A DNA stretch of 64,000 nucleotides from Emcibacteraceae bacterium (lineage in GTDB: Bacteria > Pseudomonadota > Alphaproteobacteria > Sphingomonadales > Emcibacteraceae). This document shows positions 39,779-44,092 of this stretch, piece after piece. The notes beneath the pieces are model-generated. The model was not told the DNA's origin, searched no databases, and saw nothing but the letters and a program-made list of their open reading frames with translations. Location: positions 310,001 to 374,000 of the forward strand of contig JAJFIR010000031.1 in assembly GCA_021774795.1 (NCBI GenBank), written 5' to 3'. Each line of letters starts with the position of its first letter. Positions within the stretch are counted from its first letter, which is position 1. A program made the translations under genes and the position numbers.

Positions 39779-41173
39779 ATGCCGTCTCAGCTAGCGTTAA
39801 TCAGAAAATTTATTATTGCGACAATTAACCTCTTCGTCTGGGGTGGATTAGCCATCGCACAGGAAGTGCCGCCACAAGAACTGCCGATGATCCATCAATT
39901 GGTGAAAGATGTTTCAAAAGAAAGAATTGAAAAAGACATCCGTAAATTGGTTAGTTTCGGTACGCGACATACATTATCCGATACTGTCTCAGAAACGCGC
40001 GGCATCGGCGCGGCGCGGCGTTGGATTTTCGCTGAGTTTGAGAAGATCGGCGCGGAATGTGGAAATTGTCTTGAGGTGATGTATATAAGCGATACGATAT
40101 CCGGCGAGAACCGCATCCCGGAGCCCACAGAAGTTGTTAGTGTTATCGCGATCCAGCGCGGAATGCACGATCCAAACCGTTATGTTGCTATGTCGGGGGA
40201 TATTGATAGCCGCATATCTGATCCTTTAAACGGTATCGATGATAGTCCGGGGGCAAATGATAACGCGTCGGGTATGGCTGGTGTCATCGAAGCGGCGCGT
40301 GTCCTTAGCAAACATAAATTTTCAGGTTCAATTATTTACATGGGCCTATCCGGTGAAGAACAGGGGCTATTTGGTGGCCAAATTGTTGCTAAACATGCGC
40401 TTGAAAATAACTGGCGTATTAAAGCAGTGCTTAATAACGACATGATCGGCAATATTACCGGAATTGACGGCGTGACGGATAATACCACGGCACGTGTTTT
40501 TTCGGAAGGTACTCGCGATGTTGAAACACCGGAAGAAGGACGCGCCCGCCGTTTCGCCGGCGGTGAAGTGGATAGTCCGTCCAGAAACATTGCCCGTTTC
40601 ATTGACCGCCAGGCAGATAAATATATACCTAACCTGGATGTTATGATGATCTACCGACTTGACCGGTTTGGCCGCGGAGGGCATCATCGTCCCTTTAACG
40701 CTGTTGGCATTCCCGGTGTACGTATTATGGAAACACACGAACATTATGACCGGCAGCATCAAGATATTCGCGTTGAGGATGGCCGCGAATATGGTGATGT
40801 GATTGAAGGGGTTAATTTCGAATATGCAGCGAAACTTACGTCCCTTAACATCGTCAATCTTGCCGAAATGGCGTCCGCCCCGCCCTTTCCGGCTGATGTT
40901 GAATTAAAAGGCGCCGTGCGTGCGTCGGCCGTCATCAGTTGGAAAAAACCAACCGGTGAAATGGCTGAGAATCTAGCCGGTTACAAAGTATATTGGCGCC
41001 TTACCGATGCAAATCAATGGACAAACAGCAAATATGTTGGCGATGTGGAAACATATACTTTTGAAAACCTGGTAATAGATAACTATTATTTTGGTGTTGT
41101 TGCCGTTGCCACAAATGGTGCGCAAACCCCCGTAGTATTCCCGGGACCGATGGGATCTTTCGGTGAATACTGA
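39779..41173 (+). CDS. M28-family zinc aminopeptidase, exported, with C-terminal fibronectin-III-like domain
   Basis: A 464-residue secreted metallopeptidase. Signal peptide at residues 1-30 (cleavage near AIAQE). The M28 core runs to about residue 370: GANDNASGM (metal Asp), LSGEEQGLFGG (catalytic Glu and metal Glu), LNNDMIGN and ETHEHYDRQHQ supply the remaining ligands. The last 95 residues (from about PADVELKG) are a fibronectin-III-like module ending YYFGVVAVATNG and PGPMGSFGEY. Substrates are probably peptides in the periplasm or medium. A near-copy of its last 30 codons survives at 42571, so a second gene once lay downstream. Confidence 0.93.
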   Translation: MPSQLALIRKFIIATINLFVWGGLAIAQEVPPQELPMIHQLVKDVSKERIEKDIRKLVSFGTRHTLSDTVSETRGIGAARRWIFAEFEKIGAECGNCLEVMYISDTISGENRIPEPTEVVSVIAIQRGMHDPNRYVAMSGDIDSRISDPLNGIDDSPGANDNASGMAGVIEAARVLSKHKFSGSIIYMGLSGEEQGLFGGQIVAKHALENNWRIKAVLNNDMIGNITGIDGVTDNTTARVFSEGTRDVETPEEGRARRFAGGEVDSPSRNIARFIDRQADKYIPNLDVMMIYRLDRFGRGGHHRPFNAVGIPGVRIMETHEHYDRQHQDIRVEDGREYGDVIEGVNFEYAAKLTSLNIVNLAEMASAPPFPADVELKGAVRASAVISWKKPTGEMAENLAGYKVYWRLTDANQWTNSKYVGDVETYTFENLVIDNYYFGVVAVATNGAQTPVVFPGPMGSFGEY

Positions 41174-41301
41174 TTACCTAATCAAGGCAGTAGTTGATTT
41201 GATATTAGTTGGTTTTCGTTTCCAAATTAGGCATTTTATTGAACAGTCCCCTCTGCGTAATATAGAATTTAGGTGGTATGAGTTTATATTCAATTATCCT
41301 A

Positions 41302-42438
41302 CTACCCTCTAAATAAATTTAAGTAATCCTGAAACACAAATAATCGGTAACGTCTTTGTAAGGTCACTTCTTCCAGAATACCATAACGCACAAGGTCTGC
41401 TACCAAAGAGCTTGCTGTATTCGTGGTAGTGTTCAAATGAATTGAAGCTGCTTTTACATCCATAATAGGTTGTCTATAAAAATTTTGCATGAGTGACTGA
41501 ACATTATTTTGTCTCCGTGTACTAAAGTGGGGCAACACTTCACGCTCAATACGTTCTTTCATAGAAACAATCTCCCTGAACACAGCAATTGAAGATGCAG
41601 CCGTCTCTTTAATTCCATGAAGGAAAAATACCAACCAGTCTTTCATGTGATCACCCTCACGAACAGCCATTAAATGATCGACATAAGCTGTTTTATTCCG
41701 CTCGAAATAATCTGACAAATAAAGTGCCGGTTGGGCGAGCAATTTCTCAGAAGCTAGATAAAGTGATATCATCAAGCGTCCAAGCCGACCATTACCATCT
41801 AAAAAAGGATGTATAGTTTCGAATTGGTAATGAGCAATCGCAATCTTAATCAATGGTGATACTATAATGGCATCATCATGAAGAAACTTTTCCATATCAC
41901 TCATAAAATCAGGAACATGCTCATGGTATGGTGGTACGAAGACTGCATTGTTTAGGCTTACTCCAATCCAGTTTTGACTGGTGCGAAACTCACCTGGTTG
42001 TTTATTCTTTCCACGCACTCCCTGCATTAAAATTTTATGAGTTTCTTTAAGCAAACGATTGGATAATGGAATGGTAGTAAGTTGATCAATAGAGAATTGA
42101 ATAGCTTTTATATAATTTTGTACTTCACTCCAATCGTCTCTCGCTTCTGGTGAAATATCATCTGCGTCCTTGAAAGCATCTTCAATATTCGTTTGTGTTC
42201 CCTCAATACGACTTGATTGAGTTGCCTCTTTCGCAACATACGTAGCAATAAAGAAATCAATATCGGGTATAAGCTGAGAATAAGCATTCAATTCTCCTAA
42301 TGCACGATCAGCTTGCCCAAGCAAATGCTGTATCTTTGGATCAGAAATAATCCAGTCATGACTAATGATTGTCGGAACAAAGCTCTTATATTGATATTGG
42401 GCTTCATAGTGCCCCGCCTGATAGTCATTTAAATTCAT
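41302..42438 (-). CDS. Fic domain protein (AMP transferase), class II with self-inhibitory motif
   Basis: A 378-residue protein that probably adds AMP from ATP to target protein hydroxyls. The Fic core is HPFLDGNGRLGR at residues 210-221 (catalytic H210). The N-terminal inhibitory helix is present within the same chain as SSRIEG (S75 to E79-G80), making it class II; R221 is the arginine that E79 would lock. A C-terminal winged-helix-like domain (about 300-378, with KAASIHLNTTTNTASSLVADL) suggests DNA binding or autoregulation. No separate antitoxin is adjacent. It sits between the M28 gene and a severed copy of that gene, so it looks acquired. Target unknown. Confidence 0.94.
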   Translation of the reverse strand: MNLNDYQAGHYEAQYQYKSFVPTIISHDWIISDPKIQHLLGQADRALGELNAYSQLIPDIDFFIATYVAKEATQSSRIEGTQTNIEDAFKDADDISPEARDDWSEVQNYIKAIQFSIDQLTTIPLSNRLLKETHKILMQGVRGKNKQPGEFRTSQNWIGVSLNNAVFVPPYHEHVPDFMSDMEKFLHDDAIIVSPLIKIAIAHYQFETIHPFLDGNGRLGRLMISLYLASEKLLAQPALYLSDYFERNKTAYVDHLMAVREGDHMKDWLVFFLHGIKETAASSIAVFREIVSMKERIEREVLPHFSTRRQNNVQSLMQNFYRQPIMDVKAASIHLNTTTNTASSLVADLVRYGILEEVTLQRRYRLFVFQDYLNLFRG

Positions 42439-42525
42439 ATCTCAAATCTCACCCCAGTTTCTCATTTATAATATTTCTTATAGTAGATTCTCCTGACTTG
42501 CAATATTTAATGTCAGTTTTGTATG

Positions 42526-42563
42526 TATTTTCTGATATTAAAATTACATTATGTCAGAAAATA
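42526..42563. promoter_or_regulatory. Perfect 10-bp inverted repeat upstream of Fic gene
   Basis: TATTTTCTGA (42526-42535) and TCAGAAAATA (42554-42563) are exact inverted copies 18 bases apart. Additional CTGAC (42493-42497) and GTCAG (42512-42516) half-sites lie between it and the Fic start. The spacing suits an operator, possibly for the Fic protein's own winged-helix domain. Confidence 0.5.
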
Positions 42564-42570
42564 TAAAACT

Positions 42571-42675
42571 ATGGTAGTTATCAATTATTATTTTGGTGTT
42601 GTTGCCGTTGCCAACGACGGTGCGGAAACGCCAGTCGTATTCCCCGGGCCGATGGGATCCTTCGGCGGGTATTAA
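42571..42675 (+). pseudogene. 3' remnant of a second M28 peptidase gene
   Basis: This 34-codon frame reads MVVINYYFGVVAVANDGAET then TPVVFPGPMGSFGGY and stop. It is nearly the same as the last residues of the M28 peptidase at 39779-41173 (LVIDNYYFGVVAVATNGAQT ... GSFGEY), including about 28 bases of exact DNA identity. No upstream part of the gene remains. It is the tail of a tandem paralogue, cut at about 42570 where the Fic segment begins. Any translated product would be non-functional. Confidence 0.88.
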
Positions 42676-42691
42676 AGCGAAATCTCAAAAG

Positions 42692-42725
42692 AAAATAAAA
42701 GGCTAGGGTATTTCCCAGCCTTTAT
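42692..42725 (-). terminator. Terminator of gshA (hairpin, possibly bidirectional)
   Basis: AAAAGGCTAGGG (42697-42708) pairs with CCCAGCCTTT (42714-42723) with one bulged A; on the minus strand the stem is followed by TTTTATTTTC. It lies 6 bases beyond the gshA stop and also follows the M28 remnant on the plus strand. Confidence 0.8.
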
Positions 42726-42730
42726 ACTTA

Positions 42731-44092
42731 TCAGAAAGAGCAATCCTTGAAGACCATAGAGATGTCTTTGTCCCATTCCCCGTAATAGCAATCCAACATC
42801 CTTTGCGCGGTTGTTTTTCCGCTTTCGGCAGTTTCAAAAAGTGACTTCAAGAAAACCCGCTCATCTTCACCGCTGTTATTAAAATGAGCCCGTCGTTCAA
42901 GACCTTCCGCAGAAATTTTCAGCATTTGCAGCGCAAGGTTCTGCGTTGTACCATTTCTGAAAGGCACCTTAAGTGCATCTCTGGGCACATTATCCCGTAA
43001 ATGCTGATGTTCTTCATGTGTCCAATCTTTTACCATATCCCACGCAGCATCAAGAGATGTTTGATCATATAATAATCCGACCCAAAGTGCTGGAAGTGCA
43101 CAAATTCGGCTCCATGTGCCACCATCAGCACCGCGCATTTCAAGGAATTTCTTTAATCGCACTTCCGGGAATAATGTACTCATATGATCTTCCCAGTCCG
43201 CTATGGTCGGGAGCTCTCCTTCAAAGCCTTCTAATTTTCCGTTCATGAAATCCTTAAATGATTTACCGGAAACGTCACGGTAAATGCCATTCCGATGAAC
43301 AAAATACATTGGCACATTAAGCACATGGTCAACATATGCTTCAAATCCCATACCATCTTCAAAAACAAATGGTAAAATACCGCAGCGATCAGGGTCAGTA
43401 TCTGTCCAAATATGAGAACGGTAGCTTTGAAAGCCGTTTGGTTTGCCTTCTGTGAAGGGTGAGGCTGCGAAGATCGCAGTAGCGAGAGGTTGCAGTGCGA
43501 GTGAAACGCGGAATTTTTTTACCATGTCCGCTTCGCTGGAATAATCAAGATTTACTTGAATGGTGCAGGTCCTTAGCATCATATCAAGACCTAGATTGCC
43601 TTTTTTTGGCATATAATCACGCATGATATTATAGCGGCCTTTGGGCATAATCGGCACATCTTCGCGTTTAGTGTTAGCGTTAAATCCCATACCAATATAA
43701 TTAATGCCAAGTTTTTCACTTACGGCTTGAGCTTGGCGAAGATGGCTGTTGGATTCTGCGCACGTTTGATGCAATGTTTTAACCATCGCCCCGGAAAGTT
43801 CAAGTTGGCCACCCGGTTCCAAAGTTACAGACTGACCATCTTTTTTAAGGCCAATTATATAATCGCCTTCCATAATTGGCTGCCAATCAAATTCAGTTTT
43901 TAAGGCTTCTAAAATAGCCCTGATACTGCGCTTGCCTTCATAAGGGACCGGTTTCTGACTATCAACACAATAAACAAATTTTTCATGTTCTGTGCCAATG
44001 GTCCATTCACTTTCGGGCTTTGAGCCAGATGCTATATAGTCTATTAATTGTTGTTTGGATTCTATAATGGCGTCTCGGGAAATACTGGTCAC
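42731..44092 (-). CDS. gshA: Glutamate-cysteine ligase (plant/alphaproteobacterial type)
   Basis: First step of glutathione synthesis. The 453-residue protein belongs to the GCS2 family shared with plants rather than the E. coli type. Seen are GTEHEKFVY (residues 33-41), ILEALKTEFDWQPIMEGD, LEPGGQLELSGA, TCTIQVNLDYSSEADM and EMRGADGGTWSRICALPALWVGLLYD (in parts). It is followed by a terminator and stands alone. Confidence 0.96.
   Translation of the reverse strand: MTSISRDAIIESKQQLIDYIASGSKPESEWTIGTEHEKFVYCVDSQKPVPYEGKRSIRAILEALKTEFDWQPIMEGDYIIGLKKDGQSVTLEPGGQLELSGAMVKTLHQTCAESNSHLRQAQAVSEKLGINYIGMGFNANTKREDVPIMPKGRYNIMRDYMPKKGNLGLDMMLRTCTIQVNLDYSSEADMVKKFRVSLALQPLATAIFAASPFTEGKPNGFQSYRSHIWTDTDPDRCGILPFVFEDGMGFEAYVDHVLNVPMYFVHRNGIYRDVSGKSFKDFMNGKLEGFEGELPTIADWEDHMSTLFPEVRLKKFLEMRGADGGTWSRICALPALWVGLLYDQTSLDAAWDMVKDWTHEEHQHLRDNVPRDALKVPFRNGTTQNLALQMLKISAEGLERRAHFNNSGEDERVFLKSLFETAESGKTTAQRMLDCYYGEWDKDISMVFKDCSF

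What the first reader, a model, noticed from the sequence alone, without database searches (positions are those of the whole stretch)
41174..42675. Fic gene lodged between an M28 peptidase and the severed tail of its tandem paralogue
Bases 42571-42675 encode a near-copy of the last 30 residues of the M28 peptidase at 39779-41173, with about 28 bases of exact DNA identity, but nothing else of that second gene remains. The 1.4 kb in between carries a lone class II Fic gene on the other strand, with its own operator-like repeat. The simplest history is a tandem peptidase duplication, then replacement of most of copy 2 by a Fic cassette. This marks a small acquired module and gives its right boundary near 42570. 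No transposase or flanking direct repeat is seen, so the mechanism is open.
Basis: partly seen in the sequence, partly recalled or inferred. Interest (0 to 1): 0.65.

Follow-up and report, generated by a model that had tools for sequence, protein, structure and literature searches.

The report
Single-gene Fic insertion at peptidase end
A lone toxin- or defence-type gene (Fic) has been spliced into the tail of a peptidase gene, giving the peptidase a substitute ending and leaving its original ending stranded on the far side, a mark seen beside Fic genes elsewhere more often than beside other genes, which hints at how such single genes spread.

Summary
In detail: the M28 peptidase and the fragment at 42571-42675 share 94 nt at 82%, with an exact 28-nt core (41084-41111 / 42586-42613), around a SoFic-like class II fic on the other strand. 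The proposed history is mostly not supported. Eleven same-genus genomes have one M28 tail and no Fic, and of 396 genomes of the order only this one has two tails. In six of nine same-genus loci holding gshA, M28 runs straight into gshA; in three, cargo lies between. The stranded tail is the native 3' end, with native terminator and gshA; the last ~60 bp of the 'intact' M28 are the intruders. Joining the flanks at the core gives a tail identical in protein to relative G004. Best reading: a one-crossover insertion of a ~1.5-kb fic segment that brought its own diverged M28 3' end. Closest known: 'insertion with long target duplication' of restriction-modification genes. Other Fic homologues have close flanking direct repeats in 10 of 90 loci, against 0 of 170 neighbouring genes. 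Donor, enzyme and Fic function were not shown.

The parts
39779..41111 (+). Native part of the M28 peptidase gene (M28 domain, fn3 domain), up to the end of the crossover core
   Evidence: Pfam M28 and fn3; ordinary orthologue, its 3' part 74-80% identical in DNA to same-genus genes
41084..41111 (+). Left copy of the 28-nt identical core (inferred crossover site)
41112..41173 (+). Substitute 3' end of M28 brought by the insert (TNGAQTPVVFPGPMGSFGEY and stop)
   Evidence: 14-18 of 59 differences from every relative, against 8-18 for the stranded tail; residues not seen in relatives
41174..41301 (.). Insert: AT-rich stretch between the M28 stop and the fic stop (GC 0.32), no terminator found
41302..42438 (-). 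SoFic-like class II Fic protein adenylyltransferase: HPFLDGNGRLGR motif, SSRIEG inhibitory motif, C-terminal region aligned to that of SoFic
42439..42570 (-). fic promoter region with two palindrome-like boxes (TTTTCTGACATA..TATCAGAAAA and CTGACATT..AAGTCAG); GC 0.25
   Evidence: similar paired boxes upstream of orthologues L125-L128 and L195, other half-sites in L129
42571..42585 (+). Insert's own sequence just before the right core, only weakly like M28
   Evidence: in the 21 nt before the core 8-12 sites differ from every relative, and 11 match the left copy
42586..42613 (+). Right copy of the 28-nt core
42614..42675 (+). Stranded native M28 3' end (NDGAETPVVFPGPMGSFGGY and stop)
   Evidence: same protein as G004; followed by native terminator and gshA
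42698..42723 (.). Native terminator-like hairpin between M28 and gshA
   Evidence: stem-loop found; GGCCGG..CCGGCC hairpins in several relatives at the same place
42731..44092 (-). gshA, glutamate-cysteine ligase; right syntenic anchor
   Evidence: TIGR01436, 681 bits; directly follows M28 in six same-genus loci

Best explanation
A ~1.5-kb DNA segment holding one fic gene and a diverged copy of the M28 3' end recombined once with the host's single M28 gene inside a 28-nt stretch of identity. The host gene kept its body and took the donor's last 20 codons and stop, so it stayed intact; its own last 20 codons, terminator and gshA ended up beyond fic. This is the topology of a Campbell-type insertion (circle, single crossover), or equally of one-sided homologous recombination with an illegitimate joint at about 42571-42586. 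The cargo is most likely a SoFic-like autoinhibited AMP-transferase that acts as a toxin or phage-defence factor. Shown: the mosaic structure, the native type of the stranded tail, single-copy M28 in relatives. Inferred: the donor, its form, the route of entry, the function of Fic.
For: The tails are identical over the 28-nt core but differ at 15 of 59 positions beyond it (Fisher p 0.002); 0 of 55 genus pairs are identical over the core, mean 7.5 differences. Of the four first- or second-position differences, three set the M28 end apart from the genus (it matches 0, 0 and 1 of 11 relatives, the stranded tail 10, 11 and 10); the fourth is neutral. Joining the flanks at the core gives a 36-aa end identical to that of G004. 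The stranded tail keeps a terminator and gshA, and its 55-nt gap to gshA lies within the 33-66 nt of the six relatives without cargo. No relative has two tails. Fic is absent from the rest of the genus; fic GC3 is 0.31 against 0.36-0.44 for neighbours.
Against: Only 87 bp carry the signal, so conversion of 28 bp between older copies cannot be excluded. The substitute end is only a little more distant from relatives than ordinary orthologues are. No donor genome with M28-fic was found, and no integrase or transposase lies at the site. One of 55 genus pairs also has an exact run of at least 28 nt in this tail. Reads were not available to exclude strain mixing in the assembly.
Confidence: 0.62

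Rival explanations
1. Insertion with a true long target duplication: about 100 bp of the M28 3' end was copied when fic entered, and the copies diverged afterwards.
For: Length (~100 bp), position at a gene end and kind of cargo match the published pattern for restriction-modification genes (PMC3874152, PMC1643837). Fic homologues elsewhere have flanking direct repeats of 25-185 bp.
Against: Eleven of the 15 differences are at third codon positions, as expected of two genes long under selection, yet none is in the core; the stranded fragment still has the genus-type protein, so it has not had time to drift that far.
Confidence: 0.13
2. Site-specific integration: the 28-nt block is an attachment core in the 3' end of M28, and fic is cargo of an element that lost, or never had, its own recombinase.
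For: An exact core with a substitute gene end is the classical layout for integrases that use gene 3' ends (general knowledge); six tyrosine-recombinase matches exist elsewhere in the genome.
Against: No recombinase gene in the 1.5-kb insert; no doubled M28 tail in other loci; Fic homologues sit at unrelated sites.
Confidence: 0.12
3. Tandem M28 duplication followed by replacement of most of copy 2 with fic.
For: The anatomy fits, and elsewhere G578 and G671 share a severed ABC-ATPase tail with different cargo between it and the intact gene.
Against: No second M28 in the genus or the order sample; the M28 body is an ordinary orthologue, not a diverged paralogue; the identical core is not predicted.
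Confidence: 0.1

Closest known systems
Insertion with long target duplication (Nobusato et al. 2000, as cited in PMC3874152 and PMC1643837)
   Same: A small accessory gene lies between direct repeats of the order of 100 bp taken from the target; no transposase
   Different: Here the copies differ at 15 of 59 positions outside an exact core and look like two lineages; the cargo is a solitary fic, not a restriction-modification system
Homology-facilitated illegitimate recombination in natural transformation (PMC6382021 and works cited there)
   Same: One homologous crossover anchors foreign DNA, the other end joins with little homology
   Different: No experimental evidence here; a single crossover with a circular donor explains both edges of the core more simply
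SoFic / EcSofic adenylyltransferase (PDB 3eqx, 3zcn; PMC12249575)
   Same: Fic_N + Fic layout with C-terminal domain, inhibitory motif, catalytic motif
   Different: Far below the NCBIfam SoFic equivalog cut-off (178.9 against 550 bits); no downstream AS1 antitoxin identified
Integrative elements that use protein-gene 3' ends (for example trmE, PMC8409611)
   Same: Substitute gene end restores the target gene (general knowledge)
   Different: No recombinase gene in the insert

Membership tests
Insertion with long target duplication | Insert flanked by direct repeats of ~100 bp made of target sequence | tested here: met
   94 nt, 82%, spacing 1502
Insertion with long target duplication | Related genomes show an empty site with one copy | tested here: met
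   11 same-genus genomes have one M28 tail and no fic; six have M28 directly beside gshA
Insertion with long target duplication | Both repeat copies derive from the target itself | tested here: inconclusive
   Mosaic pattern suggests that one copy came with the donor
SoFic adenylyltransferase | NCBIfam NF046030 equivalog cut-off | tested here: not met
   178.9 against 550 bits
SoFic adenylyltransferase | Match to the PADLOC SoFic model over nearly full length | tested here: met
   E 3.9e-117, residues 14-376
Class II Fic AMP-transferase | HPFx(D/E)GN(G/K)R motif and N-terminal (S/T)xxxE(G/N) inhibitory motif | tested here: met
   HPFLDGNGRLGR and SSRIEG, the latter aligned to SSEIEN of SoFic
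Class II Fic AMP-transferase | AMP transfer activity, toxicity or phage defence | not testable with these tools
   needs experiment
Integrase-dependent genomic island at a gene 3' end | Recombinase gene in the element | tested here: not met
   only fic between the cores; no PF00589 match within the window

The most novel reading that the evidence does not exclude
SoFic-like fic genes spread as single-gene cassettes that carry homeologous ends of host genes and insert there by one crossover, replacing the target's end and so leaving it working; the 'long target duplications' around such genes would then be donor-derived ends rather than duplicated target.
Probability: 0.25. Interest if true: 0.72.

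Novelty: new variant of a known kind. Interest (0 to 1): 0.5.

Why it matters
How solitary toxin and defence genes move without transposases or integrases is an open question. This locus preserves both breakpoints well enough to say which end of the target gene is native and which is imported, and Fic homologues show flanking repeats far more often than neighbouring genes, so the question can be tested by comparing many such loci. If the repeats are donor ends, published 'long target duplications' deserve re-examination.

Tried and rejected
Tandem M28 paralogues in relatives: 40 relatives, 396 genomes of the order and 95 flanked M28 loci searched, none convincing. A recombinase at the site or further copies of the core in the genome: six integrase matches, none at the site; no extra core. 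Fic on plasmids and phages: only homologues below 60% identity. Outgroup test of a second fic locus with flavin-reductase repeats (G473, L232): too few close relatives and a complex repeat structure. For G578 (L255) relatives showed that the severed tail and its downstream DNA are shared with G671 around different cargo, so it is a hotspot with an older repeat and not a clean copy of the window's case. A downstream AS1-like antitoxin: only a 39-aa TTG-start frame at 41174-41293, no support. One script used a core position off by one; corrected.

Full report
What is there. The window carries an M28 peptidase with an fn3 domain at 39779-41173, a 378-aa Fic protein on the minus strand at 41302-42438, and at 42571-42675 a near-copy of the M28 3' end. 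The repeat is 94 nt at 82% identity with spacing 1502, the only direct repeat of at least 30 nt in 13 kb around it. Inside it 28 nt are identical (41084-41111 and 42586-42613), found nowhere else in the genome at up to 3 mismatches.

Relatives. Named relatives of the M28 locus are uncultured Kordiimonadaceae. Eleven same-genus genomes give one M28 tail each, and none of the 12 other same-genus genomes has this Fic. In the order sample of 396 genomes only this genome has two tails. In 95 further M28 loci no convincing second tail exists. The usual order is M28, hairpin terminator, gshA: they are 33-66 nt apart in six same-genus loci. In G005 and G006 an amino-acid permease lies in the gap, in G012 an RTX/cadherin protein; in G008 an RTX-type protein and in G003 an esterase-like hydrolase follow M28, with gshA not on the DNA held. 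So the M28-gshA gap is a small insertion hotspot, but only here is the M28 tail doubled.

Which tail is native. Beyond the core the two copies differ at 15 of 59 positions, inside it at none (Fisher p 0.002). Genus pairs differ at 7.5 core and 14.9 post-core positions on average, and none of 55 pairs is identical over the core. The stranded tail differs from relatives at 8-18 of the 59 positions and has the same protein as G004; the end attached to the M28 gene differs at 14-18 from all of them. Of the four differences at first or second codon positions, three set the attached end apart from the genus and the fourth is neutral. Joining the left flank to the right flank at the core gives a 36-aa end identical to that of G004, and the stranded tail is followed by a terminator and gshA at the native distance. 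The simplest reading is one crossover in the core between a single-copy M28 gene and incoming DNA that carried fic plus a diverged M28 3' end. The weak point is the short informative length: conversion between older copies remains possible.

What the cargo is. Fic_N and Fic domains; nearly full-length match to the PADLOC SoFic model (E 3.9e-117), but far below NCBI's SoFic equivalog cut-off; the nearest solved structures are SoFic. Catalytic and inhibitory motifs are present. EcSofic is toxic and acts in phage defence (PMC12249575); that this protein does the same is inference. Orthologues lie after hisE in G018 (78%; gene named from its sequence), beside type I restriction and HamB-like helicase genes in G017 (73%), and beside a type IIG restriction enzyme in G085 (72%). 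Their promoters have paired palindrome-like boxes like those of the window, so promoter and gene seem to travel together; autoregulation by the C-terminal domain is a guess.

Is it a wider pattern? Fic homologues were tested for direct repeats within 450 bp on both sides (E at most 1e-4). Without the window, 10 of 90 have them, against 0 of 170 other genes in the same loci (p 2e-5) and 4 of 389 elsewhere; no fic has flanking inverted repeats by the same test. With repeats of at least 40 bp only, 8 of 90 against 4 of 559 (p 3e-5). In the set collected after the idea was formed, 7 of 46 have them. Examples: an integrase 3' end in a viral contig (L190), an ABC-ATPase 3' end (L255), the 5' end of a flavin reductase (L232), a 94-nt gene start in G017 (L129). 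Some are weak (25-41 nt, one of them tRNA-like), the loci are not fully independent, and a small control with another solitary defence gene (Abi_2) gave 1 of 14, so the excess may belong to accessory genes in general. In G578 and G671 the same ABC-ATPase end is doubled around different cargo.

Known counterpart. Restriction-modification systems insert with long, variable target duplications of the order of 100 bp (PMC3874152; PMC1643837). The window is a new case with a solitary fic as cargo and with evidence that one copy came from the donor. A library search for that phrase together with Fic found no paper. From general knowledge, not tested: the topology of Campbell-type insertion and the use of gene 3' ends by integrases.

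Verdict. Observation confirmed; acquired module supported; tandem-duplication history not supported. New variant of a known kind, of moderate interest.

Noticed in passing
window 41174-42730 and L130, L131, L132, L155, L157: The M28-gshA gap is an insertion hotspot in this genus: empty in six loci, with fic, an amino-acid permease or an RTX/cadherin protein in others; other genes follow M28 in G003 and G008.
   Followed up: partly
window 42439-42566: Two palindrome-like boxes upstream of fic, also upstream of orthologues at 69-78% identity; the G017 orthologue has different half-sites at the same places.
   Followed up: partly
L129:4535-6100: In G017 fic is flanked by a 94-nt direct repeat (96%) from the start of a small gene, next to type I restriction and HamB-like helicase genes.
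   Followed up: partly
L295:984-5799: In G671 a three-gene cargo (2OG-Fe(II) oxygenase domain, UvrD-like helicase, weakly methyltransferase-like) sits between an ABC ATPase and a 227-bp copy of its tail; sister genome G578 has fic at the same site.
   Followed up: partly
L300:1794-5586: The G473 fic locus holds several partial copies of a flavin-reductase-like gene.
   Followed up: no
L186:1478-3337: A viral contig carries a fic homologue between perfect 148-bp direct repeats.
   Followed up: no
window 41174-41293: A 39-aa TTG-start frame directly downstream of fic on the same strand; its position resembles the AS1 antitoxin of EcSofic, no sequence support.
   Followed up: no
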